From contig CAJOCL010000003.1 of NCBI GenBank assembly GCA_905233565.1, positions 124,001 through 188,000 of the forward strand: a stretch of 64,000 nt of DNA, in the 5' to 3' direction. The notes under the pieces were generated by a model, which worked only from the letters and a program-made list of their open reading frames with translations, ran no database searches and had not been told where the DNA came from. The translations under genes and the position numbers were made by a program. This document shows, one piece after another, positions 1,568-58,202 of this stretch (positions are counted from its first letter, which is position 1; the number at the start of each line of letters is the position of its first letter). This DNA comes from an uncultured Synergistales bacterium. GTDB lineage: Bacteria; Synergistota; Synergistia; Synergistales; Aminobacteriaceae.

Positions 1568-2587
1568 ATGGCAAAAGTTTATTACGAGAAGGATTGCGAT
1601 CTGGGGAAACTCACGGGAAAGAAAATAGCCATCATCGGTTACGGTTCACAGGGACATGCACACGCAATGAATCTGCGCGACTCCGGCTGTGATGTCATAG
1701 TCGGCCTCTATAAAGGCGGAAAATCCTGGCCTGTCGCGGAAAAAGACGGCTTCACTGTAATGACCGTAAGCGAGGCTACAAAAGCTGCTGACATAATCAT
1801 GATACTGATCAATGACGAAAAACAGGCAGATATGTACCGTTCCGAAATGCTCCCTTATTTGACAGAGGGAAAGACAATCGCATTTGCTCACGGTTTCAAC
1901 ATCAGGTACAAGCAGATCGTTGCTCCTGCCGGCGTTGATGTCTTCATGGCAGCCCCGAAAGGTCCGGGACACACGGTAAGAAGCCAGTACGTAGCAGGAA
2001 AGGGAGTTCCCTGCCTCGTTGCCGTTGAACAGGACGCGTCAGGAAAATGCCTCGATACCGCTCTCGCTTACATTGCAGGAATCGGCGGTGCAAGGGCAGG
2101 CATTCTTGAAACGACAATGCAGCAGGAAACAGAGACGGATCTCTTTGGTGAACAGACTGTACTTTGCGGAGGCGTTGTTGACCTGATGCAGTGCGGATTT
2201 GAAGTTCTCTGCGAAGCCGGTTATGACCCTGTAAACGCTTATTTCGAGTGTATCCACGAAATGAAGCTGATAATTGACCTTGTAAACAGGGGCGGAGTTG
2301 CAGCAATGAACTACTCAATTTCAGATACTGCGGAGTTCGGTGAATACGTTTCAGGCCCCCGCGTTCTGCCTCATGAGGAAATAAAAGCAAACATGCGCAA
2401 AGTTCTCGCTGACATTCAGGACGGTACATTTGCAGGACGCTGGATCGCAGAAAACAAAAACGGCCGTACATTCTTCAACTCAAAGCGCGACCAGTTAGCA
2501 AAGCACCCAATGGAAACAATCGGGAAACAGCTGCGTGAACAGATGCTTTGGAAGGACGGTTCAAGCCTCGATGAAGTATCGAAGTGA
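1568..2587 (+). CDS. ilvC: Ketol-acid reductoisomerase
   Basis: Catalyses the NADPH- and Mg-dependent isomerisation and reduction of acetolactate or acetohydroxybutyrate, the second common step of isoleucine and valine synthesis. At 339 residues it is the short class I form. The Rossmann motif [10 protein letters not shown] lies near residue 25. The loop LYKGGKSW ends in Ser, as in NADPH-dependent members. FAHGFNI and [10 protein letters not shown] carry the catalytic His and the metal-binding Asp and Glu. The ATG at 1568 has AAAGGGG upstream. Its 3' end overlaps ilvD by 17 nt, and the two form one operon. It is possibly repressed by CodY through the box at 1524-1538. Confidence 0.97.
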
Positions 2588-4238
2588 TAACATCAAATCC
2601 GGTGTTGAACGCACTCCGAATTTAAGCCTGTTATATGCTCTGGGACTGACAAAAGAAGAGATTTCACGTCCCATAATCGGTGTAGTAAACTCATTCAGCG
2701 AAGTCGTACCCGGTCATATGCACCTGGACAAAATAGCTCAGGCCGTTAAAGAAGGAATTTACGCCGCAGGTGGAACGCCGATGATGTTTCCTGCTATTGC
2801 TGTCTGTGACGGTATTGCAATGGGTCATGTTGGAATGAAATACTCTCTCGTTTCGCGTGATTTAGTTGCTGACAGCACGGAGGCAATGGCTATAGCTCAT
2901 CAGTTTGACGGCCTTGTACTGATTCCGAACTGCGACAAGAACGTACCCGGAATGTTAATGGCTGCAGCAAGGCTGAACATTCCCGCAATATTCTGCGCAG
3001 GAGGGCCGATGCTTGCAGGTCATCTGAAAGACGGAAGGCGTACCTGCCTAAGTCATATGTTTGAGGCTGTCGGGGCATATCACGCAGGAAAACTCGACGA
3101 AGCTGGAGTTGACGATTACACGGAAAACGCCTGCCCTTCATGCGGTTCATGCTCAGGAATGTACACGGCAAATTCAATGAATTGTCTGACTGAAGCCATA
3201 GGCATGTCATTGCGCGGAAACGGAACGATCCCGGCTCCTTATTCAGCAAGAATAAGACTTGCTAAATTAACGGGCATGAAGATTATGGAACTCGTGAAAA
3301 ATAACATACGTCCGAGAGACATAATGACATCAGACGCTTTCAACAATGCAGAAGCGGTTGATATGGCTTTGGGCTGTTCAACAAATACGATGCTGCACCT
3401 TCCTGCCATTGCACATGAAGCCGGAGTAAAAATAGATTTGAGCCACGCAAACGAAATCAGCGAGAGAACGCCGAATTTATGCCATTTAGCTCCTGCCGGT
3501 GATACTTTCATGGAAGACCTGGACAGAGCCGGAGGAGTTTACGCCGTTATGAATGAGCTTGCAAAGAACGGACTTATTAAAACTGACCTGATTACTGCAA
3601 CGGGTAAGACGGTCGGCGAAAACATTTCAGGGATTGAAATTCTTGACAATGAGATAATCCGGCCTGTAAGCAATCCTTATTCAAAGACGGGAGGAATTGC
3701 GGTACTCAAAGGGAATTTGGCACCGGACGGCTGTGTTGTCAAACGTTCGGCAGTTGCACAGGAAATGATGAAACATGAAGGGCCTGCAAGGGTGTTTGAC
3801 AGCGAGGACGAAGCTATTTCGACGATTTACGCGGGAGGAATTAAAGCCGGCGATGTTGTAGTAATACGCTACGAAGGGCCTAAAGGCGGTCCGGGTATGC
3901 GTGAGATGCTGAATCCGACAAGCGCAATCTGCGGAATGGGACTCGACACGAGCGTTGCGCTGATTACTGACGGGAGATTTTCAGGAGCTACGAGGGGCGC
4001 AAGTATCGGCCATGTAAGCCCTGAAGCTGCGTCAGGCGGTAATATTGCGCTCGTTCATGAGGGCGATATAATCAGCATTGACATAAATAACTACAGCATA
4101 ACGCTTAAAGTTTCTGATGAGGAATTAGCGAAGAGGCGCGCCGAATGGACTGCACCTGAACCGAAGATTAAGACGGGTTATCTTGCAAGATATGCGAAAC
4201 TCGTTACAAGTGCGGATAAAGGAGCAATCTTGGAGTAA
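2571..4238 (+). CDS. ilvD: Dihydroxy-acid dehydratase
   Basis: An iron-sulfur enzyme that dehydrates dihydroxyvalerate and dihydroxymethylvalerate in valine and isoleucine synthesis. The protein has 555 residues. The start at 2571 gives [16 protein letters not shown], matching the family N-terminus; an in-frame upstream start at 2535 would add 12 unlike residues. Cluster and active-site motifs are visible: [27 protein letters not shown], and the C-terminal [10 protein letters not shown]. The gene overlaps the end of ilvC by 17 nt, which implies coupled translation. A strong intrinsic terminator follows immediately. Confidence 0.97.
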
Positions 4239-4248
4239 GTCAGTCAAA

Positions 4249-4286
4249 AAATACCTTCAGCGTAAAAACTGAGGGTATTTTTTTTT
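4249..4286 (+). terminator. Intrinsic terminator of ilvCD
   Basis: AATACCTTCAG and CTGAGGGTATT form an 11-bp stem with one G-T wobble and an 8-nt loop. A run of T residues follows directly. It lies 11 nt after the ilvD stop. Confidence 0.85.
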
Positions 4287-4303
4287 GTGATTATATTGTA
4301 TTT

Positions 4304-4588
4304 TTACCCTAACGCCTTTTCAAGAACTTTCTTGACGTTCTCCCTGCACTCCTCGTATTTTTCGCCCTTGTGAGACTCATACACCTTCACGCCGTCAACG
4401 AACATGGCCGGAACATGATAGTAATCATATTTTTCTGAAATTTCCGGGTGCTGATTCTCCTCAATCCATTCAAACGGAACGGATGAATATTCCGCATTAC
4501 CAGATGATAATTCTTTCAGTGCCTCTTTTGCCTGTCTGCAATAAGGGCAACCCTCAATGTAAAACGCCGTAACTTTTTTCGTACTCAT
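4304..4588 (-). CDS. Glutaredoxin-like protein
   Basis: A small cytoplasmic thiol-disulfide protein of 94 residues with the thioredoxin fold. The active site CPYC lies near residue 14. The family cis-Pro region is YHVPAMFVDG, and a C-terminal helix follows. The ATG at 4588 is preferred because AAAGGTAAA lies upstream; the longer reading uses a TTG seven codons earlier. It is convergent with ilvD and divergent from the isochorismatase gene, so it is probably its own transcription unit. The partner protein is unknown. The CPYC motif would support reduction of mixed disulfides. Confidence 0.85.
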   Translation of the reverse strand: MSTKKVTAFYIEGCPYCRQAKEALKELSSGNAEYSSVPFEWIEENQHPEISEKYDYYHVPAMFVDGVKVYESHKGEKYEECRENVKKVLEKALG

Positions 4589-15853: not shown

Positions 15854-18800
15854 TTATGAGCCTGATGAAGAGTTATTATTACCGCCCATACCGTTGAGCT
15901 GATTCAGTATTGCCGCGATCGAACTTGCCTGCTGATTCAATCTTGCGAGGCTCGTTTCAGTGTTTGCGTATCTTGTTCTCAGGCTCTCTTCCATTCTGTC
16001 CAGTCTTTCCTGATATTTTTCAAGATATTCATTAATATCATCAACCTGAGACTGTATGTTATTGATTTCACGCGTCAATGTTCCCGGAGTTTCGCCGGAA
16101 GCAGAACTGTTTAACATTCCTCTTGTCCATGTGCTGAACTGTTCAACGAATTTCAGCATTAACGTCTGAACTTCATCGGGGTTGTTTTCAAGAGCCTCCA
16201 TGAACTCGCCGGAATTAAATACAAGTTCTCCGCTCTTTCCGTAATCCTCAGATGTTGACTCAATGCCTATCTGATACAGGCCCTTATATGTGTAATTCAT
16301 TTTCAGGGCATTCATGGCCGCAGTTCCTGACATTGTGATCTCTTCATTTGAGCTTGAAGTTATGACTAACTTGTCATTCTCAACGCTGGCCTTGAGCAAT
16401 GCTGTCGGCAGTTTGTTGCCGTTGTCGTCGTAATAAATGTCGTTCATTGCTCCGCCCTTTGTGTCATCGCTTATCTTTTTAACGATCGTTTCAAGAGTAT
16501 CTGTCGGATCAATCGTAACATCAACATACTTTGTCCCTATACGGAGCCTTAAAGTTGACGATGTTTTGAGGCCGTTGAATCCCATTGTCCCGTAAACTTC
16601 CTCTGAACTTTTACGCTGAGTGAATGAAAATGTGAAGTTCTGGGACGTTATATTACGCATCTGGCTTTTAGTCTGACGTAAAAGCGAATTTCCGTGAAGC
16701 AGTCCCCACCTCATTCTGAAGTCATCGCTGTCAACCGTCGCTTTTGTGTCTTTATCGACCTGGTTCTCAGTCATTCGGGTATTCATCCAGGTCATGAGGT
16801 CATTATAATTGTCAACGAAAGTTTGAATCGATTCGACAGCCTTTTCAGCGTCATGCGAAATATCGAGAGAAACCTCGCCTACTCCTTTAAGGTGCAGCGT
16901 TATGCCCTCCATGCCTTTAATCTCGTTGTTGTAGTCAGCCCCTATATCATTTGAAGCGGGCGTTATTGTCTGACCGTCGATTACAAGTTCAGCGTTCTGT
17001 GCTGCCGTAACATCATCGTTAAGGCCGAGAAGGTCAACTAATCCGTCGCCGTCATCAGTTAGTGTGTAAACGTTAGCGTCATAATCATATGTAACGGTCA
17101 ATTCTTCGTTAAGCGAGGGCAGGTCAGTTCTTGATGTCAGAGTAGGAGTTACCCATTTGAAATTAAACGTTCCGCTTGTTGTCGGAGTGATGTCAATTCC
17201 GTAAGTACCTTTGATTACGGTTCTCCCGTCGCCCACACCGCTATCAGGGGCATCGAGCTTGTATGAATGTCCGTCGCCGTACTGAACGCTTATTGAACCT
17301 GTTGCAGTGGTCATTCCGTAATCGGCCATGTTAAGGGAAGCGTTTGAATCTCGTGTACCCGTGTAAGTTGTAGTGTTTCCGTTATCGTCAGTGTGATTAA
17401 TCGTGTACGTTGAGCCGGGATTAGGGTAATACCATTCCGTACCGCCGTCAGAGCCGCTTATCCATTCTATTTGTGCCTTGCTGTCGCTGTCCTTTGTTAT
17501 GTTGAAGTCAACACCCTCATAGAATGTCTTTGAACCCTGAGTAATAGTTGTAGTTCCTCCGCTTAAATCTGAATATGCGGGAGTTCCTGTGATTGAATCT
17601 GTTGCCGAACGTTTTACGCCCTTTGTTGTGAGAGCTTCGCCTGAACCTCCTGTGAATGTCAGAGTAAACGGACTCGTTGGAGTTGCTCCGCCGGAAATCC
17701 ATTCGATAAGCGGTGAATATTCGCCTGATTTGCTGTCTGCCGTACCGCTGCTGTTTTCTATAATACGGTAATCTTTGCCGTATTCATAAGTTTTAGTGCC
17801 GTCAGTGAGCTTGAAATACGGAGAGAGAGAGCTGTCAATCTTTGACTGTTCTTCCTGCGATATATTTGCGTATGTGCATATCTGCTTATAGCTCAACTTG
17901 TTACCGCCTATATTGCCGTAGCCTTCGGCTGTTTCAAACTCTGCTGCCTGAGTTGTTGTGCCTGCGGTGTATGTTCCTGTAAGCTCGTAAGGGTCAAACG
18001 CCTTATATGTCAGAGTGTAAGCGCCTGCCGGGTGTTTCGGGGCTGTGGCTGTACTGTTCCAAGTTATCGCACCTGTTGTCGAGTCAAGCGTGTAATCAGT
18101 TCCAGCAGTGTAAGCATTGCCGTCAATGTCAGTTATTGAGAGTTTTGAGTAATTTGACGGGATAAAGCCTATTGCGTCCTCAACGGTCTCAGATGAAATT
18201 ACGGTGCGTGAAACTGAATTGTTGTATGTCAGGGTGAGACCTGATTTCGGCATTGAGGTTGAAGAGTCCCTATTAGTTAAAGCGGAAGGCCAGTTGTATC
18301 CTTCTTTCGCACTGACTACGGTTAAATATTTAGCTCCTGCACCGGTAGTTGAATACCGTACAGCGTAATCCTTGCCGTATTCATAAGTGTTGCCGTTGCT
18401 ATCGGTGAGTGTGAATGCCGCTTTGCCTTCATTTTCGTCAACATATGTATAACTGCCGTCCGTGAATGTCTTAGTTCCCAAGCCGTTGATTGATATAGGA
18501 CTTGCAATCGTGTTAATACCGTTGCTGTTGAGTGTGGGGACAGTCATGGATACTGAAGGATTACTGCTGAAAGTGTAATTTGCCGTATATGCTGCAGGGG
18601 TATCGCTGTTCTGATTGAGCCACGTTATTGTCCCTGACTTGTCAATGACGTAATCTTTGCCGTAAGTGTAAGTTTTCGAGCCGCTTGTTATGGTTATTGC
18701 CGAAGAGTAATCGGAACTATTCACGGTTGTACCGCTGAGGACGTGAGCGAGTGTTTTGTCGGCGTCGGAGGAATTAACATCTCCTGAGTCTGTTTTTGTG

Positions 18801-20986
18801 CTTGTTCCGGTGAACGTGAGATTATAACTATTTCCGCTGTCCGGAGCTTTCTTCATATCGTAGGTGGTGAGTTTTTTGTACTGCGTGTAGGTCGTAACTA
18901 CTGTAGTTGCATCGTTGATGTCATAATTTGTGTCACCGTTGACATCGTTTGATACTGCCCACGAAATTGTGTAGCCTTTATGGTCATCATTGACGCGGAT
19001 AACGTAATCCTTTCCGTACTCATACGTTTTCCCCCCTGAAGTCATCTTGAACAGCGATGAATCCGCAGGGTCAAGGTATGTTCTGAGTACGCCGTCACCG
19101 TCAGTGAGTGTTACGGTAGGAATTGATGTTGTGCCGTATGTCTGGTTGTAAGCGTTCTGAAGTGCCGTGAAGTCAGAAGCACTCAGAGGAACGTCATCAA
19201 TCGATGATGAGGTTGCTGTCTTGTCTATCCACTGTATTTCGCCGTAGTCGGGGCTTGTTGTGTCAATATTTACGGTGAAATCAGTTCCGTACGTGTAGCC
19301 TCTAATTTTCAGCATGTTTTGGTCGAAATTGGACATATCAAAATCAGAGCCGAATATCGTTGTCAGTAATTTGTCGTTGTCCGATGCGCTGACTCTTCCC
19401 ATTCTGGTGTAGTCGTAATCATAGGCCATGCTGAAGGTCATTGACGTACCGTTTGAAGGAGCCGTCTGGGGTGTAGCTGATATGCTTTTAGAATTCCTAT
19501 ACTCAGTGACAATATTACCGCCAGCCCAGACAATTTGCCAGTTTCCGTTTGAAGTGTTTGATGTATTGTCTGTTGTCTTAATGACAAAATCTCTTCCGTA
19601 TTCGTAAGTTGTTCCCCCTGCTGTTATATTGAGAGCTGAACGGTCAGGAGGATCAAGGTAATATATCATCCTGCTCGGGTCGGAAGATAAGGGTACATTT
19701 TTCGAGAAAAGTTGTATATCATCACCTGTAGTATTCTTGTAAAGCTCGCAGAGTTTGGTGTAATCAATACTGATAGGGTCATAAACTCCTGAAATTTTTG
19801 ACTGCGTTACATCATAGCTTCCCTTAGCCTTGTCATCATACCTGACAATATATGAATCCGGCTCATCAGTATATGTTACAGTTGATGTGCCTTTTGTGCC
19901 GTTTATCGAAGTGCTTACGGTCTCGGTCTTGTTGTAACTGACATTGTAAGAACTGGGTTCGTTAGTTTTTTCGCCTGCCTCTTCGAGCCAAACTACTTTC
20001 CCGGTAGTTTTATTAATCGTGAAGTCTTGGCCGTATTTATATGTATCCGTGCCGTCAGTAATCTTCAGCCTTGAAGCCAAAGTCCCTTTGTCAACCCAGC
20101 TCAATTTCGAAAGATCGACCTCGTTTGTCCCGTAAGTTCCCGAAGCCGTGTAGACATCATTAGCGGCCATTGTGTATTTAACGTTCACTGTATCATTAAG
20201 GGCTACTTCCGCGCTCCTGTCGTACTGTTTCCAACGTATTTCATTGCCGTTGACTATCGTATAATCCTTATGGATTGTGTATTTTTTGCTGCCGCTGGTA
20301 ATTGAAAGGTTATCGAGATTGTTCTCGTCAACCGTAAAATTTGACAGCGTATTAACGCCTGAAATATTGTAATTTATTTTCTCTTCGTTCGTGTAAGTTC
20401 CCAGACCCGTATTATCGCTCTTTAGTATTAACTTGTTGTCAAGCACTAAAGCCGTTACGTGTATGGGATTGTCAAGCGTCTTCAATGTCGTGTTAATGCG
20501 TGATTTCAGGGATTCAAGGGAATCCGTTGCTTTAACTTCAATTCCTACCTGCTGCCCTCCCGCGTTGACATAAAGAGTTGAACTCGTAAGGCCGCCTAAT
20601 GTGCTTGCAAGTGTCGATGATGTAATCTGTTTCGACCTGTTAATCTGTGCGGTTGCAATCTGATTTACTTTTATATCATAAACGTTTACTTCAGCATCAG
20701 CGTTTACCGTTGCCGTCAAAACTCCCTTGTAAGAGCTTGAACTGTCTATCCGTTCAATATCAACCTGTTTAGCTTTGTATGTTGACGGTAATTTCAGCGG
20801 CGATAATGAGGACTGAAGGCTGTTCATTGTTACCTTCATTTCCTCAAAGAGTGATTTCTTGTTGAGCAGGTCAGTTTTCTTGCTTACTTTGGGCTGTGCA
20901 GGAGCTGAGGCAGATTCGATTATGCTGTCGATCATGCTGTCCCAGTCCATGCCGGAAACTACACCTGATACGCTCATTGATGCCAT
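15854..20986 (-). CDS. fliD: Giant flagellar filament cap protein FliD
   Basis: Hook-associated protein 2, the pentameric cap that folds flagellin onto the filament tip. It is secreted by the flagellar export apparatus. Residues 1-225 contain the FliD N-terminal domain (VSGMDWDSMIDSIIE, a FliD hallmark). Residues 1303-1710 contain the C-terminal domain (ELVIDGQTI, VESIQTFVDNYNDLMTW) and the terminal coiled coil (LEKYQERLDRMEESLR, then LARLNQQASSIAAIL). Between them lie about 1080 residues of degenerate repeats, listed separately. FliD is usually 450-700 residues, so this is unusually large. The ATG at 20986 has AGGAGG 9 nt upstream, and a sigma-28-like promoter lies at 21027-21054. It is monocistronic. 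Confidence 0.93.
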   Translation of the reverse strand: MASMSVSGVVSGMDWDSMIDSIIESASAPAQPKVSKKTDLLNKKSLFEEMKVTMNSLQSSLSPLKLPSTYKAKQVDIERIDSSSSYKGVLTATVNADAEVNVYDIKVNQIATAQINRSKQITSSTLASTLGGLTSSTLYVNAGGQQVGIEVKATDSLESLKSRINTTLKTLDNPIHVTALVLDNKLILKSDNTGLGTYTNEEKINYNISGVNTLSNFTVDENNLDNLSITSGSKKYTIHKDYTIVNGNEIRWKQYDRSAEVALNDTVNVKYTMAANDVYTASGTYGTNEVDLSKLSWVDKGTLASRLKITDGTDTYKYGQDFTINKTTGKVVWLEEAGEKTNEPSSYNVSYNKTETVSTSINGTKGTSTVTYTDEPDSYIVRYDDKAKGSYDVTQSKISGVYDPISIDYTKLCELYKNTTGDDIQLFSKNVPLSSDPSRMIYYLDPPDRSALNITAGGTTYEYGRDFVIKTTDNTSNTSNGNWQIVWAGGNIVTEYRNSKSISATPQTAPSNGTSMTFSMAYDYDYTRMGRVSASDNDKLLTTIFGSDFDMSNFDQNMLKIRGYTYGTDFTVNIDTTSPDYGEIQWIDKTATSSSIDDVPLSASDFTALQNAYNQTYGTTSIPTVTLTDGDGVLRTYLDPADSSLFKMTSGGKTYEYGKDYVIRVNDDHKGYTISWAVSNDVNGDTNYDINDATTVVTTYTQYKKLTTYDMKKAPDSGNSYNLTFTGTSTKTDSGDVNSSDADKTLAHVLSGTTVNSSDYSSAITITSGSKTYTYGKDYVIDKSGTITWLNQNSDTPAAYTANYTFSSNPSVSMTVPTLNSNGINTIASPISINGLGTKTFTDGSYTYVDENEGKAAFTLTDSNGNTYEYGKDYAVRYSTTGAGAKYLTVVSAKEGYNWPSALTNRDSSTSMPKSGLTLTYNNSVSRTVISSETVEDAIGFIPSNYSKLSITDIDGNAYTAGTDYTLDSTTGAITWNSTATAPKHPAGAYTLTYKAFDPYELTGTYTAGTTTQAAEFETAEGYGNIGGNKLSYKQICTYANISQEEQSKIDSSLSPYFKLTDGTKTYEYGKDYRIIENSSGTADSKSGEYSPLIEWISGGATPTSPFTLTFTGGSGEALTTKGVKRSATDSITGTPAYSDLSGGTTTITQGSKTFYEGVDFNITKDSDSKAQIEWISGSDGGTEWYYPNPGSTYTINHTDDNGNTTTYTGTRDSNASLNMADYGMTTATGSISVQYGDGHSYKLDAPDSGVGDGRTVIKGTYGIDITPTTSGTFNFKWVTPTLTSRTDLPSLNEELTVTYDYDANVYTLTDDGDGLVDLLGLNDDVTAAQNAELVIDGQTITPASNDIGADYNNEIKGMEGITLHLKGVGEVSLDISHDAEKAVESIQTFVDNYNDLMTWMNTRMTENQVDKDTKATVDSDDFRMRWGLLHGNSLLRQTKSQMRNITSQNFTFSFTQRKSSEEVYGTMGFNGLKTSSTLRLRIGTKYVDVTIDPTDTLETIVKKISDDTKGGAMNDIYYDDNGNKLPTALLKASVENDKLVITSSSNEEITMSGTAAMNALKMNYTYKGLYQIGIESTSEDYGKSGELVFNSGEFMEALENNPDEVQTLMLKFVEQFSTWTRGMLNSSASGETPGTLTREINNIQSQVDDINEYLEKYQERLDRMEESLRTRYANTETSLARLNQQASSIAAILNQLNGMGGNNNSSSGS
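17081..20311 (-). repeat. Eleven degenerate protein repeats inside FliD
   Basis: Residues 226-1302 of FliD carry about eleven copies of a unit 80-145 residues apart. The core is a Thr-Tyr-x-Tyr-Gly-x-Asp-Tyr-x-Ile turn followed by an Ile-x-Trp strand, for example TYEYGKDYVI and TITWLN. Cores begin near residues 236, 316, 460, 563, 655, 773, 868, 959, 1067, 1154 and 1241; the first and last are weak. Most units are introduced by a TSG or TDG turn and end in a Tyr-Thr-x-x-Tyr strand, so a beta-sandwich fold is likely. The copies are diverged at DNA level. Confidence 0.85.
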
Positions 20987-21026
20987 GAATAATAACCTCC
21001 TGTCTTTAACGAATATCCTGTAATTC

Positions 21027-21054
21027 TTATCGGCGGATTTTTTGGTTAATATTA
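21027..21054 (-). promoter_or_regulatory. Sigma-28 (FliA)-type promoter of fliD
   Basis: On the minus strand a perfect GCCGATAA -10 element (21034 to 21027) is preceded, after 16 bp, by TAAT (21054 to 21051). The sigma-28 consensus is TAAA-N15-GCCGATAA. It lies about 40 bp before the fliD start and overlaps the lysA stop codon. Confidence 0.75.
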
Positions 21055-22338
21055 GAGTGTCTGACCCCTTATTAAATCTTTCATGCTCTGACGTTCGCAG
21101 ACAATTCTTGATTTCCCGTCTTCAGCAAAAATTACTGCAGGTCTGGGCAGACAGTTATAGTTGCTTGACATGCTGAAGTTATAAGCTCCCGTGTTGAACA
21201 AAGCGATAACATCACCTGCTTTTACTTCCTGAATTTCAGCGTCATCAATCAAAATATCGCCCGACTCGCAGCACTTCCCGACGATTGAGACCTTTCCGCC
21301 TGATTTATGATGATATATAGCCCCGTCAGTGTCATCAACTTTTACGGCGTTGTATTCAGCCTGATAAAGGGCAAATCTCGGATTGTCAGTCATTCCTCCG
21401 TCAACGGCAATATAAGTTATTTCGGGAAGTTCGCGGACGTTTTCGACGGTATACAGGGTTATGCCGGCTTCGGAGACTATCCAGCGTCCTGGCTCAAGTA
21501 CAACTCTTGGAATTTCAAGGCCGTATTTTTTGCAGTTGTCAATCAGCGCATTCATCATCGCATCCGTATAAAAAGCTGATTTCATGGCCGGGATTTTAGG
21601 GTTTATGACGGCCCCGAATCCGCCGCCCATGTTAAGCTCATTAACGGTGAAATTGAGATTGTCTTTCAGCCCCTTCATTAACTCCGAAATTTTTTCGATT
21701 GATTTTATGTAATCATCAGTATCAAAAAGCTGTGAACCTACATGAAAATGAAGACCGCGAAGATTAATATATTTGCTGCTGACCGCGTATTTTACGGCTT
21801 CGCTTAACATTGAGCCTTCACGGTAATCGGCAGGGACTCCGAATTTGCTGTCGGTCTGGCCTGTAGCAATATACTTGTGTGTATGTGCATCAACGCCGGG
21901 CGCAACACGAATCGTAACTTTCTGAACAATTCCGGCTTCTTTCGCGTAATTCTCAATAATTTTCAATTCGTCAGGATGATCAACGATTATTCGTCCGACC
22001 TTTGAATTTATTGCATATTGAATTTCTTTATGGCTTTTAGCGTTGCCGTTCATTTCGATTCTTTCGGGCGGAAAATCCGCGCTCAATGCCGTATAAAGCT
22101 CGCCCATTGATACAACGTCAAGCCCCAAGCCCTCGTCAGCAATTAATTTTGCTATTGCTCTTGTCAAAAATGCTTTTCCTGCGTAACGTACTCTTGTATT
22201 CTCCCAGCGTTTAAGGAACGTTTCAGAAAGTTCCCTGCACCTTGCCTTTATCATTCCCGAGTCGAAAACGTAAAGCGGTGTGCCGAATTTTTCTGCTAAT
22301 TCGCGGCAGTCAACGCCGCCCCATGTTAAACGTGAAAT
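21052..22338 (-). CDS. lysA: Diaminopimelate decarboxylase, probable AUU start
   Basis: A PLP enzyme that decarboxylates meso-diaminopimelate to lysine. YAGKAFLT holds the PLP lysine. HFHVGSQLFD, ELNMGGGFG, EPGRWIV and CCESGD (catalytic Cys) are family motifs. The first standard start codon is ATG 22254. However, 28 further in-frame codons upstream encode the conserved family N-terminus (GGVDCRELAEKFGTPLYVFD), which forms part of the barrel. That frame has no ATG, GTG or TTG. It opens after a stop at 22356, and the only plausible start is ATT at 22338, preceded by GGGGAG with 7-nt spacing. The full length would be 428 residues. The fliD promoter overlaps its stop codon. Confidence 0.9.
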   Translation of the reverse strand: MSRLTWGGVDCRELAEKFGTPLYVFDSGMIKARCRELSETFLKRWENTRVRYAGKAFLTRAIAKLIADEGLGLDVVSMGELYTALSADFPPERIEMNGNAKSHKEIQYAINSKVGRIIVDHPDELKIIENYAKEAGIVQKVTIRVAPGVDAHTHKYIATGQTDSKFGVPADYREGSMLSEAVKYAVSSKYINLRGLHFHVGSQLFDTDDYIKSIEKISELMKGLKDNLNFTVNELNMGGGFGAVINPKIPAMKSAFYTDAMMNALIDNCKKYGLEIPRVVLEPGRWIVSEAGITLYTVENVRELPEITYIAVDGGMTDNPRFALYQAEYNAVKVDDTDGAIYHHKSGGKVSIVGKCCESGDILIDDAEIQEVKAGDVIALFNTGAYNFSMSSNYNCLPRPAVIFAEDGKSRIVCERQSMKDLIRGQTL

Positions 22339-22420
22339 TTTTGAACTCCCCTTTTACTTTCTCATGATATTATTTAATGCAAAATTATATAAAAACTTTC
22401 TGAAAAGGTATCACGCTATT

Positions 22421-24652
22421 ATGATTAACCTGACTGAATGGGAACGCAATAATTTCATAAATACAGCCCATATGCCCGACATAACCGTAATATTTCCCTC
22501 AAGGGAGATATATTTTTCGCCCGAAATATTAAACGTCATGCGCCTGAATATCGAGACATGCCCGAAAACTTTGGATCAATGGTACGAATTGTGCCACCCT
22601 GAAGATCACATGAAACTTTCAAAACTTGAAAGCATTATTTACGGCCATGAAAGCACGTTCACCCTTACAAGAAAACTTTACTGCGGAGACGGATATTACA
22701 GAAATTTCAGGCTTGACGGTTTTGTTCAGAGGCAGGACGGGAAACCCGTAAAAATAACGGGGACGGAAACGCTTGCATTAAGTGCATGGCTTGCGAACGC
22801 TCAGGAGGGCGACAGGATAGAATGCACTGACAATAACGGGATTATCAGGACGCTTGAGGCTTTCAGGGTTCAGGGCGTAATGATGCTCAGGGATATAGGC
22901 GAAATTGAGGACATGCAGCAGGAAAATTTGAGACTGAGGCGTGAAATTCAGCGCAGAATTTTTTCACGTTCAACATTTCCCGTAATTCTCCCTGAAGATT
23001 ACACGGAAGGGACGTTAATACATAATAAACTTGAAGACTGCATAAATTCAGCCTTGAACGTAATGACGGGTAACAGCCAGTTAAAAGCGCTGAGGCGTTC
23101 GCTTAACGAGACAAGTTTAATGATAGGAATTGCAGGGCTTACGAGCAGCGGTAAATCATCATTTGTCAATGCACTTTTAGGGGAGAGATTAATCCCCGAA
23201 CAGACGAGGGCAACTACAAATATCCCGATAATATGCCGTGAGGGTGAATTTCGTTCAGCAAAAATATTTTATCAGGACGGGCGTTCAGAAGAAATAAGGG
23301 GGGCTGAATTAACGGGCGTATACATGAAAAATGCGGCTTCAGAGAGTTTCAATCCGGGCAACAAGTCAGGGATTTCACGGATTGAAATAACAATACCCGG
23401 CGCGATGATACCTTCGGGGATATGTTTTGTTGACACTCCGGGATTTGACGCACTCGCAAGTTCAGGGGGCGCGGCTTTGAGGAATGTCCTGCCTGAACTC
23501 GACATGATGATTTACGTTACACCCGTAAGAGCAAGATTAAAGGGAGCGGATTACGAATATTTAAGGCTGTTGATGAACATGAACGGGAGAATCGTTTTTG
23601 TTCTTTCACAGATTGATTTAGAACGTGATGATTCAGAAGCAGGACAGGTCATACATTCAGCACACGATAAAATTTTAGGGGATATTAATGCGATACGTCA
23701 GGACATGAGGAATTTTTGCGGGACTGATTTCGACGTTATACCGGTGTCGTCAAAAAATGCCCTTGAAAATTTCTACGACAAAAAATCTCAATCTTGGATA
23801 GATTCAAATCTTGAAGATGCTGTTAATTATTTTGAACCTTTGGGGCGTGATTCATTTACGCGTGCTTTGATGATGAGGGCTGAAAGAATATTAAAACTTG
23901 TTGACGGTGTAATATCGAGAAGGGAAGTTACAGGCTCATCGCGCTGGAGACTGCAGGAAGTTGCCGGGAAGCTGCGTAAAATTCTGTCGGTAAATTCCGG
24001 ACTTTCTGAGATTCCGTCAGGCTATTCATTTTCAGAGAGCGTCATAACTCCAAAAAATCAGGGTAAAAATTTATTGTCATCGCTTATAACGTCAATGCGT
24101 GAACGTGAATTTAAGACGAGATTTTTCGAGCTTGAGGCATTCAGGAACAAGAAAAAAGCTGTTTTATTAGGCGCGGAAAAAATACAGAGCATGAAACTTT
24201 TTTCGAGGCTGTCTCATAACTTAATGCTTGAAACTATGCCTGACGGGGGCGTAATTCCGTCTGAATGGCTCTGCACCGGCCATGTAATGCCGTTCGGCTG
24301 CGTCCGTGTACCTGTTACGGGAGGGGCTGAAAATATTTTGATTGCGCCGTCGAACGTTAATATAACTCAGAATGTTGACTGGCATAAATTATTTAATGAA
24401 TATGTCCCTGTTGTCAGCGTTGACCTTGCGAGGGTTGATTCGGGGCTGTCGGATCTTGTAAATTCGCCGTATATAACCGGCCTTGCGCTGAACAAGTGGG
24501 TTTTATCGTTCGGGAATGCAGGATTATTCGACACAAGGCAGATTGATTTAGTCTCGCAGGTTCCGAAGAGGGTTAATGAATTTGTTGAACTTAACGGCCT
24601 TAAATCTCCTGACTGGTTCATATTTGAGAACTACAAAATATTTTCGGTTTAA
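22421..24652 (+). CDS. PAS domain-dynamin-like GTPase fusion
   Basis: A 743-residue cytoplasmic or membrane-peripheral protein. Residues about 20-115 look like a PAS_3-type sensor (WYELCHPEDHMKL, YRNFRLDGF, GKPVKITG). A helical linker (about 160-180) follows. A dynamin-type GTPase starts near 230: the P-loop GLTSSGKSS (239-247), a TT-containing switch (RATTNIP), G3 VDTPGFD (337-343), and a G4-like SQID (396-399) where NKxD is usual. The C-terminal half has no recognised motif. The ATG at 22421 has AAAAGG upstream; an upstream open stretch would overlap lysA. It is divergent from lysA and tail-to-tail with nudC. The role is unknown. Confidence 0.7.
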   Translation: MINLTEWERNNFINTAHMPDITVIFPSREIYFSPEILNVMRLNIETCPKTLDQWYELCHPEDHMKLSKLESIIYGHESTFTLTRKLYCGDGYYRNFRLDGFVQRQDGKPVKITGTETLALSAWLANAQEGDRIECTDNNGIIRTLEAFRVQGVMMLRDIGEIEDMQQENLRLRREIQRRIFSRSTFPVILPEDYTEGTLIHNKLEDCINSALNVMTGNSQLKALRRSLNETSLMIGIAGLTSSGKSSFVNALLGERLIPEQTRATTNIPIICREGEFRSAKIFYQDGRSEEIRGAELTGVYMKNAASESFNPGNKSGISRIEITIPGAMIPSGICFVDTPGFDALASSGGAALRNVLPELDMMIYVTPVRARLKGADYEYLRLLMNMNGRIVFVLSQIDLERDDSEAGQVIHSAHDKILGDINAIRQDMRNFCGTDFDVIPVSSKNALENFYDKKSQSWIDSNLEDAVNYFEPLGRDSFTRALMMRAERILKLVDGVISRREVTGSSRWRLQEVAGKLRKILSVNSGLSEIPSGYSFSESVITPKNQGKNLLSSLITSMREREFKTRFFELEAFRNKKKAVLLGAEKIQSMKLFSRLSHNLMLETMPDGGVIPSEWLCTGHVMPFGCVRVPVTGGAENILIAPSNVNITQNVDWHKLFNEYVPVVSVDLARVDSGLSDLVNSPYITGLALNKWVLSFGNAGLFDTRQIDLVSQVPKRVNEFVELNGLKSPDWFIFENYKIFSV

Positions 24653-52665: not shown

Positions 52666-54465
52666 TTAAAAGTTCAATATGCTCATTATTGATTGTGAGT
52701 TTTGATTTGCCTGTGAAAGCATTGAAGTACCTGACTGGCTCAATATCTGCAGCTTGACGAAATCCATATATTCAAGTGCCATATCAGTATCCCTTATCCT
52801 GCTTTCCGATGCCTGTAAGTTCTGGCTTGTCTGAGTGAGGCTGTTTGAGTTGTATTCGAGTTCATTCTGGTATGAGCCGAGTTTTGATCTTTGAACGTTG
52901 ACTTTGTGAATTGCCCTGTCAAGAAGGGTTATTGATTTTGAGGCGTTCTCCCTTGTCGAAACATCAACACTGTCAAGCTCCAATGCCTCAGAGCCCATAT
53001 CAGCTATGTTGATGTATATGTCCTCACCCTCTCTCTGGCCGATCTGAAATGCCGTACTCCTGTCATGTATATGAAGTGTCGTAGTGTATGGCTGTGATTC
53101 GCTGTTCAGTACGTAGCATTTTGAGCCTTCATCCCATGCTGCTTTGACATTGGCCATGCCGTCAAATTCTATGCTTGCGTTAGGGTGGATTGCTCCGTTT
53201 ATGATATTTCCGTCAGTTGCGATATTCTTGGCCAGAACTTTGCCTGAATGGGCATCAAAGATTGACGCGGTGAAAGTATTTTCCTCAGCTTCAGTAATTG
53301 TATTCAGTCCCAGAGCGTTTATTAATCCTTCATTTTCGGAACTGAATGTAAGTTTTCCTGCCTCTCCTGCAATTGCGCTGCGTATTAATATGGTTCCTTT
53401 TGCTATCTGTACAGGAGTTCGAATTTCAACGGGGGAATTAGTATCAGGGTCAAGAATTAAATTCCCGTCTGAATCTCTCTGGTATGTAACTTCTTCAGCG
53501 TCAGTATACGGCGTAAGTGTAGGATTATTTGTTGAAACTGATTCGGAAGTTCCCGGCGTTCCGTCAGAAATCGTGCAGAAGTTTTCGCGGTTATCGACAT
53601 AAGCAGCCTGCCCCAAGTCGTCAGCAATTGCATCGTTTATTTTCTTTCTGACATCGTAGACCGTATCGCCTCCGTATACAACTATGTCTGCTGTTTTCCC
53701 GTCACCCTGAGTTATTCTTATCATTTGTGGTTCAGTGAAGTATGATACTCCGCTGGCAGATCTGAAGGCTTTTATGTTCTCAAGCGTTGCCGGCTGAAGT
53801 CTCTTTTCGGTTACTATTCTTGTCTCGGTTGAGCCTGAAACTTTTTCTTTTGTCGTCTCCTCCTGCAATACTTCAAGATCGATTATGCTGCTTTTCTGAA
53901 CTTGTCCCTGTCCTGCCTTCGCACGAATTTCAATCTTGTAATTCCCTTCAGTTGCTTTTTTCTGGCCGTAACTGTCAATTGCCGTAATTGCTCCTGAAAG
54001 TTTGAGCTTTGTGCTTGCCTCATCAGAAGACCATTGAGCCGTTGAGCTCCCGTCAAGAAGTCTTTTGCCGTTGAATGTAGTAGTTGATGCAACGCTGTCA
54101 ACGTTTTTTCTGATTTCGTCAATTTCGTTCTGAATATAGCTTCTGTCCTGCTGGGTAAGTGTATCGTTGGCTGCCTGAACTGAAAGCTCCCTCATTCTCT
54201 GCAGCATTGAAGTAATCTGGCTTAACCCGCCCTCTGCCGTCTGAAGCATTGAGATTCCGTCCTGCGTGTTACGTATTGCCCTGTTCACGCCCGCAACCTG
54301 AGCCGAAATGTTCAGCCCCATTGCGAAAGCTGACGCATCATCGGCCGCCGTAGCAGCCTTTAGACCGGTTGACAACGCGCGCGCTGTCTTCTCCATAGCT
54401 TTATTCGTGGCAGTCAGGGCGTTATATGTAGTGTTAATGATGTTGCCGTTATTGCCTATCATCAT
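52666..54465 (-). CDS. fliC: Flagellin
   Basis: The filament subunit, secreted by the flagellar type III system. At 599 residues it is larger than most (about 280-500). The N-terminal D0/D1 region is clear (ALSTGLKAATAADDASAFAMGLNISAQVAG in part, QTAEGGLSQITSMLQRMRELSVQAAND). The C-terminal D0/D1 ends DMALEYMDFVKLQILSQSGTSMLSQANQNSQSI in part. The middle 300 residues are a variable exposed region. The start at 54465 or the next ATG (54462) follows AGGAGG. A sigma-28-like promoter lies at 54509-54536. It is monocistronic. Confidence 0.96.
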   Translation of the reverse strand: MMIGNNGNIINTTYNALTATNKAMEKTARALSTGLKAATAADDASAFAMGLNISAQVAGVNRAIRNTQDGISMLQTAEGGLSQITSMLQRMRELSVQAANDTLTQQDRSYIQNEIDEIRKNVDSVASTTTFNGKRLLDGSSTAQWSSDEASTKLKLSGAITAIDSYGQKKATEGNYKIEIRAKAGQGQVQKSSIIDLEVLQEETTKEKVSGSTETRIVTEKRLQPATLENIKAFRSASGVSYFTEPQMIRITQGDGKTADIVVYGGDTVYDVRKKINDAIADDLGQAAYVDNRENFCTISDGTPGTSESVSTNNPTLTPYTDAEEVTYQRDSDGNLILDPDTNSPVEIRTPVQIAKGTILIRSAIAGEAGKLTFSSENEGLINALGLNTITEAEENTFTASIFDAHSGKVLAKNIATDGNIINGAIHPNASIEFDGMANVKAAWDEGSKCYVLNSESQPYTTTLHIHDRSTAFQIGQREGEDIYINIADMGSEALELDSVDVSTRENASKSITLLDRAIHKVNVQRSKLGSYQNELEYNSNSLTQTSQNLQASESRIRDTDMALEYMDFVKLQILSQSGTSMLSQANQNSQSIMSILNF

Positions 54466-57272: not shown

Positions 57273-58202
57273 ATGAAATTAAAATATATTGCACTGTTTC
57301 TTTTATTGCTTGCATTAACCGGCCATGCTCAGGCAGCAAACACGCGCGCCCCCTTCATAGTTATAGAACCTCAGTATCAGGCTGCAGGGGACTTTCACGA
57401 GGGATTGGCAGCCGTAAAATCAAATGACCGCTGGGGTTATATTGACTATTTGGGAAGGATAGCGATTCCCTTTGTTCACCGTGTCCCCGAAGCAGGCGAT
57501 TTTTCCGAAGGTTTCGCGTTCGTCGGGGATCACTACATCGACACTGAAGGGAGGCCGGCTTTTGTCCGAATTGATCCTGATACTGATGAAAGAATAGAAA
57601 GATTTTTCAATAACGGTCTTCCTTTTTCTGAAGGAATGGCAGCCGTTCAGGTCGGGGGTCAGTGGGGATATATTGACTTAATGGGTAATTATCTCATTGC
57701 CCCGTCATTCGAGAGAGCAGGGCAGTTTGTTGACGGCATTGCACCGGCACGGCAGAAAGGCTTATGGGGTTACATCGACACACGCGGACGCTGGGTAATT
57801 GAACCTAAATACCTGAGAGCAAGAGAGTTTCACGAGGGATTGGCAGCCGTTTTTATTCGCGGCCTCTGGGGCTATATCAACAGAGAGGGAAAATACGCAA
57901 TAAAGCCGCAGTATTATGAAGCCGGAGATTTCTATGACGGTGTTGCGCCCGTCAGAAAGCGGACAAGCTATCGGGGCTGGGGATATATAGGACACTGGAA
58001 TAACTTTTCGATTCCCGTACGTTACAACAACGCAGGGAATTTCAGCGAAGGCCTTGCTCCTGTTGCTGCCGATACAAGATGGGGTTATGTCAATGTCCGT
58101 GCCGACTGGGAAGTTACAGGGCAGTATGAAGACGCAAGGTCATTAAGCGAAGGTCTTGCTGCCGTCAAAATCGAAAATAAATGGGGATATATAAGGCCGT
58201 GA
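57273..58202 (+). CDS. Exported WG-repeat protein
   Basis: A 309-residue exported protein with signal peptide MKLKYIALFLLLLALTGHAQA. About seven WG repeats fill the mature part, each following W-G-Y-I-D...G...I-x-P-x-Y/F...A-x-x-F-x-E/D-G-x-A-x-V. Examples are WGYIDYLGRIAIP, WGYIDTRGRWVIEPKY and WGYINREGKYAIKPQYYEA. Such proteins are thought to be beta-rich, and their functions are unknown. The start has AGGAGGAAGG upstream, 9 nt after nagA, so it is probably co-transcribed. A GlcNAc or cell-surface role is only suggested by context. Confidence 0.85.
   Translation: MKLKYIALFLLLLALTGHAQAANTRAPFIVIEPQYQAAGDFHEGLAAVKSNDRWGYIDYLGRIAIPFVHRVPEAGDFSEGFAFVGDHYIDTEGRPAFVRIDPDTDERIERFFNNGLPFSEGMAAVQVGGQWGYIDLMGNYLIAPSFERAGQFVDGIAPARQKGLWGYIDTRGRWVIEPKYLRAREFHEGLAAVFIRGLWGYINREGKYAIKPQYYEAGDFYDGVAPVRKRTSYRGWGYIGHWNNFSIPVRYNNAGNFSEGLAPVAADTRWGYVNVRADWEVTGQYEDARSLSEGLAAVKIENKWGYIRP

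What the first reader, a model, noticed from the sequence alone, without database searches (positions are those of the whole stretch)
15854..20986. Giant FliD with about eleven inserted repeats
The filament cap is 1710 residues, roughly three times the usual size. The N- and C-terminal FliD domains are intact, and about 1080 residues between them are a string of degenerate beta-rich repeats. The cap is at the filament tip, so the insert would project outward, and an adhesin-like or mucin-contacting tip is plausible. Repeat copies are too diverged for slippage, implying long-term retention.
Basis: partly seen in the sequence, partly recalled or inferred. Interest (0 to 1): 0.8.

Follow-up and report, generated by a model that had tools for sequence, protein, structure and literature searches.

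The report
Flagellar cap with swappable domain arms
A rumen bacterium and all its close relatives carry a flagellum-tip protein two to four times the usual size, because one loop of it has grown into a chain of 4 to 14 small domains whose central pieces get exchanged between species, which suggests (but does not yet prove) that the flagellum tip is used to contact or evade something in the gut.

Summary
The ORF at 15854-20986 (-) is an intact, single-copy FliD of 1710 aa. About 1135 aa are inserted between the FliD_N and FliD_C cores, with 10 detectable repeats and a probable degenerate 11th. It is not an artefact: every complete FliD found in the genus (uncultured ruminant-gut Synergistaceae) is giant (about 1070-2120 aa).

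Across the phylum the insert grows in steps with repeat number, from 0 copies (about 35 aa) through 1, 2 and 3 to 4-14 (slope 119 aa per copy, r = 0.99). The insertion point maps inside the D3 head domain. The repeats are individually recognisable modules kept in order between species (window: F A J A E G I C D B). End modules are conserved and the middle is variable. Two sister species with 93% identical FliD cores carry unrelated cassettes of about 170 aa in the middle.

The insert is under purifying selection (dN/dS 0.18-0.30), acidic and nearly cysteine-free. A sigma-28-like promoter is conserved upstream. The repeat is a distant relative of the DUF4815 / Ig-like module of phage tail proteins.

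Most likely it is an out-and-back arm on the cap with an exchangeable apex, used for contact or evasion. No binding function was tested; mucin binding is speculation.

The parts
15854..20986 (-). fliD, giant filament cap protein, 1710 aa
   Evidence: single copy in the genome
20417..20986 (-). FliD N-terminal core (aa 1-190: D0/D1 helix, first part of D2-D3)
   Evidence: Pfam FliD_N aa 11-114; conserved across genus; dN/dS 0.04-0.12
17009..20416 (-). Repeat array (aa 191-1326), 10 detectable modules, types F A J A E G I C D B, inserted in a D3 loop
   Evidence: dN/dS 0.18-0.30
20075..20314 (-). Module 1 (type F, aa 225-304), fixed first module
   Evidence: best matches are module 1 of other species, 57-68% identity; type F leads nearly all complete genus arrays
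18152..18706 (-). Modules 6-7 (types G-I, aa 761-945), the central cassette that is replaced by M-N or G-K in relatives
17267..17557 (-). Module 10 (type B, aa 1144-~1240), fixed last recognised module
   Evidence: 60-70% identity to the last modules of other species
15857..17008 (-). FliD C-terminal core (aa 1327-1710)
   Evidence: Pfam FliD_C in two stretches; alignment A1, 50-82% identity to genus members
16292..16624 (-). Second insertion (aa ~1455-1565) splitting FliD_C, Flagellin_IN-like in relatives, no repeat module
   Evidence: FliD_C split; PF07196 hit in a relative at the same place (L077 aa 1507-1567)
21027..21055 (-). Sigma-28-like promoter CTAAT...GCCGATAA upstream of fliD
   Evidence: CCGATA about 50 bp before the start in nearly all genus loci, also where the flanking gene differs. 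Not significant in the window alone, so it rests on conservation
20996..21001 (-). Ribosome-binding site AGGAGG
   Evidence: conserved ACAGGAGG in genus loci

Best explanation
The gene encodes a filament cap whose D3 head domain carries a long insertion built from tandem small beta-domains. SHOWN: the FliD core is intact and conserved; the insert lies inside D3; it grew stepwise in this phylum to 4-14 modules in this genus; modules keep their order between species; the ends are conserved; the centre is exchanged as cassettes; the insert is under purifying selection. INFERRED: because both ends of the insert return to D3, each of the roughly five cap subunits carries an arm that leaves the cap and comes back. 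The conserved first and last modules form the base and the swappable central cassettes the apex. The arms project from the flagellum tip and the apex contacts something that differs between niches, such as host mucus glycans, feed or protozoan surfaces, or other cells. Contact (adhesion/recognition) is the preferred function; the identity of the target is unknown.
For: FliD domains and single copy. Predicted structure of the 1066-aa relative matches the E. coli FliD D1-D2-D3 crystal structure (Z 20.7, rmsd 4.3, 338 residues) and the Salmonella cap on its filament (Z 19.2, rmsd 4.4, 432 residues). Insertion point at Salmonella FliD ~193-201, inside D3, via a repeat-free relative (D3 = residues 104-230 in P. 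aeruginosa, PMC5072837). Stepwise growth, 78 FliDs, slope 119 aa per repeat, r 0.99. Module order and identity. Cassette swap between sister species: mostly 78-100% identity outside, 19-29% within aa ~800-960. Middle less conserved than ends in 18 of 18 nearest-neighbour pairs. dN/dS 0.18-0.30 in the insert against 0.04-0.14 in the cores. Promoter, pI ~4.1-4.4, 0-3 Cys. Precedents: P. aeruginosa and C. difficile FliD implicated in mucus/host adherence (PMC8306008, PMC7616799). The P. aeruginosa FliD head is dispensable and replaceable by the larger H. pylori head, so a large head need not block assembly (PMC8533109).
Against: No ligand, no binding motif, no significant match of the window protein to an adhesin or carbohydrate-binding family. 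The out-and-back geometry is an inference: multi-repeat models have low pTM (0.32 and 0.39) and the relative orientation of modules is unknown. Central variability would look the same if it served escape from phages or antibodies rather than binding. Hook, junction and flagellin proteins are also large in this phylum, so a general tendency to enlarge outer domains exists.
Confidence: 0.55

Rival explanations
1. Shield or antigenic variation: the array has no ligand of its own. It hides the conserved cap from flagellum-binding phages or host antibodies, and cassettes are swapped because attackers select for novelty.
For: Sharp cassette swaps in an otherwise ~90% identical protein; higher dN/dS than the cores; surface location in the head.
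Against: Modules remain under purifying selection, and the same module types recur in fixed order across many species, which is more orderly than simple escape needs. No phage or antibody data.
Confidence: 0.22
2. Structural scaling: a wide filament made of large flagellins needs a wide cap, so the head grew to cover it.
For: Flagellins here are large (599 to ~960 aa); FlgK 1016, FlgL 1096, FlgE 859 aa; giant flagellins form thick filaments elsewhere (PMC6248924).
Against: Sizes are uncoupled across the phylum: genomes with flagellin frames of 1840-1963 aa have FliDs of only 655-695 aa, and flagellins of ~760-780 aa go with FliDs of 496 to 838 aa. Scaling does not explain cassette swapping.
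Confidence: 0.06
3. Neutral ratchet: the head is dispensable for assembly (shown in P. aeruginosa), so module duplications accumulate and are tolerated with no function of their own; purifying selection only keeps modules folded and secretable.
For: The head tolerates replacement by unrelated sequences (PMC8533109); the number of modules changes even between close sisters (L076 has 6, L077 has 10, core identity 95%).
Against: Every complete FliD in the genus keeps at least 4 modules; fixed end modules and module order; dN/dS well below 1 over about 1000 codons; cost of exporting several 180-kDa chains per flagellum (inference).
Confidence: 0.15
4. Assembly or binning artefact.
For: Most relatives are metagenome-assembled genomes.
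Against: More than 20 complete genes from separate assemblies, with conserved flanking genes in many of them; continuous reading frames; positional orthology of modules.
Confidence: 0.02

Closest known systems
Canonical FliD (E. coli, Salmonella, P. aeruginosa; PDB 5h5v, 9gnz, 5fhy)
   Same: FliD_N and FliD_C, D0-D1-D2-D3 core fold, single copy
   Different: Those are ~465-475 aa with one simple D3; here D3 carries a 1135-aa module array, and FliD_C has a second insertion
FliD of Helicobacter pylori and Campylobacter jejuni with extra head domains
   Same: Head enlarged by additional domains in a gut bacterium
   Different: H. pylori has two extra domains (D4, D5) described as similar in fold to D2/D3 (PMC8306008); C. 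jejuni FliD is about 640 aa. Here there are 4-14 copies of a different, DUF4815-like module with cassette exchange
DUF4815 (PF16075) / PHROG 877 and 807 Ig-like modules of phage tail and baseplate proteins (e.g. phage phi812, PDB 9eui chain Q)
   Same: Repeat motif Y-x-x-G-x-D-Y ... G-x-I-x-W ... P ... Y-x-V-x-Y; 11 of 21 test units match PF16075 and 17 of 21 match PHROG 877 (best 8.9e-7, 1.5e-8); L101 FliD matches PHROG 877 at 2.3e-11
   Different: Only the ~50-aa module is shared, not the phage protein; the window protein as a whole does not reach significance
Giant flagellins with expanded outer domains
   Same: Core axial domains plus enlarged, variable outer region; also reported from Synergistetes (PMC6248924)
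   Different: Flagellin is the filament subunit; here it is the cap, with countable repeat modules
Multi-domain repeat adhesins of the bacterial surface
   Same: Tandem beta-domain arrays that extend a binding part away from a base (PMC7616799)
   Different: Those are anchored at one end; this array is an internal loop anchored at both ends in the flagellum tip, and no ligand is known

Membership tests
FliD (filament cap) | FliD_N and FliD_C domains over curated cut-offs in one protein | tested here: met
   59.4 vs 24.8 bits; 90.8 vs 25.4 bits
FliD (filament cap) | D1-D2-D3 core fold | tested here: met
   model of the 1066-aa relative L101: Z 20.7, rmsd 4.3, 338 residues to 5h5v_C; 19.2 to 9gnz_R. 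The window protein itself is too long to fold whole with the tool
FliD (filament cap) | Encoded in a flagellated genome with hook, junction and flagellin genes | tested here: met
   flagellins, FlgK, FlgL, FlgE present
FliD (filament cap) | Located at the filament tip as an oligomer | not testable with these tools
   needs microscopy
DUF4815 / phage tail Ig-like module | Profile match of the repeat module | tested here: met
   11 of 21 units to PF16075 (best 8.9e-7), 17 of 21 to PHROG 877; FliD of L067 34.5 bits, cut-off 30; L101 PHROG 877 E 2.3e-11
DUF4815 / phage tail Ig-like module | Window protein itself over the family cut-off | tested here: not met
   no PF16075 match at E 1; PHROG 877 E 0.015. 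So it is called a distant relative, not a member
DUF4815 / phage tail Ig-like module | Same fold | tested here: inconclusive
   VIA Z 5.0, rmsd 3.1, 64 residues, 28% identity to 9eui_Q; Z 5.5 to T7 and Kp9 tail proteins, within the range of chance; Foldseek E > 0.001
H. pylori-type D4/D5 head extension | Extra head domains resembling D2/D3 | tested here: inconclusive
   the second insertion (aa ~1455-1565) is Flagellin_IN-like in relatives; the main array is a different module
Adhesin | Demonstrated ligand or a binding domain | not testable with these tools
   no significant binding-domain hit in Pfam or NCBIfam; function needs experiment

The most novel reading that the evidence does not exclude
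In these rumen Synergistaceae the flagellar cap has become a multi-armed recognition device: about five looped arms per filament tip, built from phage-tail-like Ig modules, with a fixed base and an apex cassette that is exchanged between species to change what the tip binds.
Probability: 0.3. Interest if true: 0.85.

Novelty: new variant of a known kind. Interest (0 to 1): 0.62.

Why it matters
Flagellar caps are usually treated as small assembly chaperones, and the head domain of P. aeruginosa FliD is dispensable for that job. Here one lineage has built the head up, module by module, into the largest part of the protein and exchanges its central parts between species. That gives a natural series (0, 1, 2, 3, 4-14 modules) for testing what the cap head is for, whether tip-located modules mediate contact in the rumen, and how a protein of up to about 220 kDa is exported and folded at a filament tip. 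It also links a cap protein with a domain type otherwise described from phage tails.

Tried and rejected
Sequence search of the window protein against PDB found nothing for the insert, only coiled-coil and filamin noise. Search with the repeat profile gave one marginal relevant hit, the DUF4815 protein of 9euf (E 0.0015). Foldseek of the two-repeat model had no hit below E 0.001; top rows are phage tailspikes and tail proteins, but VIA Z of 5.5 or less is not above background. tblastn against phages: best E 0.03, some hits annotated as adsorption or DUF4815 proteins, none significant alone. Idea that FliD size follows flagellin size: not supported. Idea that the repeat occurs in other surface proteins: only FliD in the own genome and in 21 genomes apart from one 700-aa frame and one weak hit. 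Apparently normal-size genus FliDs (G006, G014, G027, G084) are incomplete: contig end, frame break, or N-terminal core absent. The promoter pattern alone is not enriched in the window. Ten literature searches did not find a described FliD of this size or with such repeats, but the library holds open-licence papers only.

Full report
WHAT IS THERE. The minus-strand ORF 15854-20986 is 1710 aa. FliD_N matches aa 11-114 and FliD_C matches in two stretches, both above Pfam cut-offs. The genome has one FliD. Between the two cores lie about 1135 aa that no Pfam or NCBIfam family covers. Self-comparison gives 10 offsets above the maximum of 30 shuffles. A repeat HMM built from the window and iterated over the genus finds 10 copies in the window and none in 170 shuffled inserts; a degenerate 11th copy is likely at aa ~1240-1320 (by eye). 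Consensus: F-x-I-T-D-x-G-G-K-T-Y-T-Y-G-T-D-F-T-I ... I-x-W, followed in most units by P ... Y-x-V-x-Y, with a median spacing of 99 aa.

NOT AN ARTEFACT, AND GENUS-WIDE. Named relatives are MAGs from goat, sheep, deer, roe deer and reindeer guts, called Synergistaceae bacterium, Synergistales bacterium or Fretibacterium sp., plus two more distant relatives (L100, L102) that are probably from termite guts (the termite origin is inferred from isolate names). All complete FliDs of the genus are giant, about 1070-2120 aa, with 4-14 repeats. Shorter frames (G006, G014, G027, G084) lack the N-terminal core, end at a contig edge or change frame. In many loci fliD has the same neighbours as in the window: PLP-dependent decarboxylase, NhaC-type antiporter, trpF (gene names from my reading of the sequences).

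A STAIRCASE ACROSS THE PHYLUM. In 78 FliDs the gap between the N and C cores rises with repeat number: 0 copies, median 35 aa; 1, 114 aa; 2, 196 aa; 3, 394 aa; up to 13 counted at the stricter cut-off, 1540 aa. Slope 119 aa per copy, r 0.99. Species are related, so this p-value is not to be taken at face value; the point is the near-constant increment. Repeat-free FliDs of other families are mostly 481-503 aa. Genera of the own family have 1, 2, 3 or 4 copies; the termite-type relatives 2-4. The module was therefore probably present in small number before the genus arose and was then multiplied.

WHERE IT SITS. Aligning a repeat-free Synergistota FliD to solved structures puts the insertion point at about residue 193-201 of Salmonella FliD. 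In P. aeruginosa, D3 (head 2) is residues 104-230 (PMC5072837), so the array is a loop insertion of D3. The model of the 1066-aa relative L101 agrees: its core aligns to E. coli FliD with Z 20.7, and the E. coli D2-D3 fragment (72-267) spans model residues 72-725, which include the array. A second, unrelated insertion of about 110 aa splits FliD_C.

MODULES HAVE IDENTITIES. Of 271 units, 265 are most similar to a unit in another species; median identity is 61% to that unit and 31% to the best paralog. Relative positions correlate (rho 0.89). Clustering gives types with a recurring order: F A (J) A E, cassette, C D (L) B. The window reads F A J A E G I C D B. L059 reads F A J A E M N C D B, i.e. 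the same array with another central pair. L036 (14 units) reads F A - A E A E G I G K C D B, as if the A-E block and a G-x cassette had been duplicated. A duplication is visible in L038 (units 3 and 4, 62% identical).

CASSETTE EXCHANGE. L074 and L088 are sister species with FliD core identity 93%. Their FliDs are mostly 78-100% identical, but only 19-29% over aa ~800-960, with sharp edges in protein and DNA. The L074 cassette is 65% identical to that of L072; the L088 cassette is 65% identical to that of L093. L076 and L077 share 95% of the core but have 6 and 10 modules. In 18 of 18 nearest-neighbour pairs the middle of the array is less conserved than its ends (gaps count as mismatches, and anchoring at the ends can add a little to this pattern).

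SELECTION, EXPRESSION, EXPORT. dN/dS in the insert is 0.18-0.30, against 0.04-0.14 in the cores: constrained, but looser. Synonymous sites are saturated in the more distant pairs; the close pairs L082/L087 (0.20 vs 0.08 and 0.14) and L074/L088 (0.30 vs 0.09 and 0.10) carry the argument. Nearly all genus loci have a sigma-28-like element (CTAAT ... CCGATA) about 50 bp before the start, and ACAGGAGG. In the window CTAAT overlaps the stop codon of the upstream gene; loci with another upstream gene have it too. The insert has pI 4.05-4.43 and the whole protein 0-3 cysteines, as expected of a flagellar export substrate.

RELATIONSHIP OF THE MODULE. Single units match Pfam DUF4815 (11 of 21, best 8.9e-7), PHROG 877 (17 of 21, best 1.5e-8) and PHROG 807, 'major tail protein with Ig-like domain' (10 of 21). 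One order relative's FliD passes the DUF4815 cut-off and L101 matches PHROG 877 at 2.3e-11; the window protein as a whole does not. The best PDB sequence hit of the repeat profile is a DUF4815 protein (9euf/9eui series, E 0.0015); 9eui, phage phi812 baseplate, also appears in the structure comparison (Z 5.0, rmsd 3.1, 28% identity over 64 residues). This is a distant relationship of a small domain; direction of transfer is not shown, and the structural part is within noise.

CONTEXT. Other axial proteins are large too: FlgK 1016, FlgL 1096, FlgE 859, flagellins 599 and 961 aa. This holds across the phylum and is not tied to FliD size. The FliD module occurs almost only in FliD.

MECHANISM. Shown: an intact cap core with an old, ordered, selected module array in D3 whose centre is exchanged. 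Inferred: since both array ends return to D3, each subunit would carry a looped arm whose apex is the central cassette. Literature supports feasibility: the P. aeruginosa FliD head is dispensable and can be replaced by the larger H. pylori head (PMC8533109), and FliD has been implicated in mucin or mucus binding in P. aeruginosa and C. difficile (PMC8306008, PMC7616799). Contact or recognition is preferred (0.55); shield/antigenic variation (0.22) and a neutral ratchet (0.15) remain open.

Noticed in passing
L160:3283-9706; L161:2878-5457; L158:1548-4433; window 52666-54465: FlgK (1016 aa), FlgL (1096 aa), FlgE (859 aa) and flagellins (599 and 961 aa) of this genome are all far above textbook size; a phylum-wide trait.
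   Followed up: partly
window 22280-24652 (+): 790-aa protein with a dynamin-like GTPase region and a PAS-like N-terminal part (by eye), divergent from the decarboxylase-fliD pair and conserved next to it in many genus loci.
   Followed up: no
L074 versus L088 (also L076 versus L077): Sister species differ by a whole cassette or by four modules inside an otherwise nearly identical FliD.
   Followed up: yes
G023:C46:37552-37692: A FliD-type repeat module (E 5e-6) lies in a 700-aa frame outside the FliD gene of that genome.
   Followed up: no
L048 (G006:C17) 2393-4444: FliD-like frame with most of the C-terminal core but about 340 aa of unrelated sequence in front and no N-terminal core found; misassembly or rearranged gene.
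   Followed up: partly
Model m9873ac08a92c (L101 FliD) residues 111-681: Part of the FliD D2-D3 head resembles a domain of phage tail sheath/baseplate proteins (7kh1_A6, Z 10.4, rmsd 2.8, 109 residues).
   Followed up: no
L066/L017, L129, L130, L135: Some order relatives carry one repeat module inside the FliD_C half (e.g. L017 aa 622), a second integration site for the same module.
   Followed up: no
window 57273-58202 (+): 309-aa probably secreted protein made of WG-type repeats (by eye).
   Followed up: no
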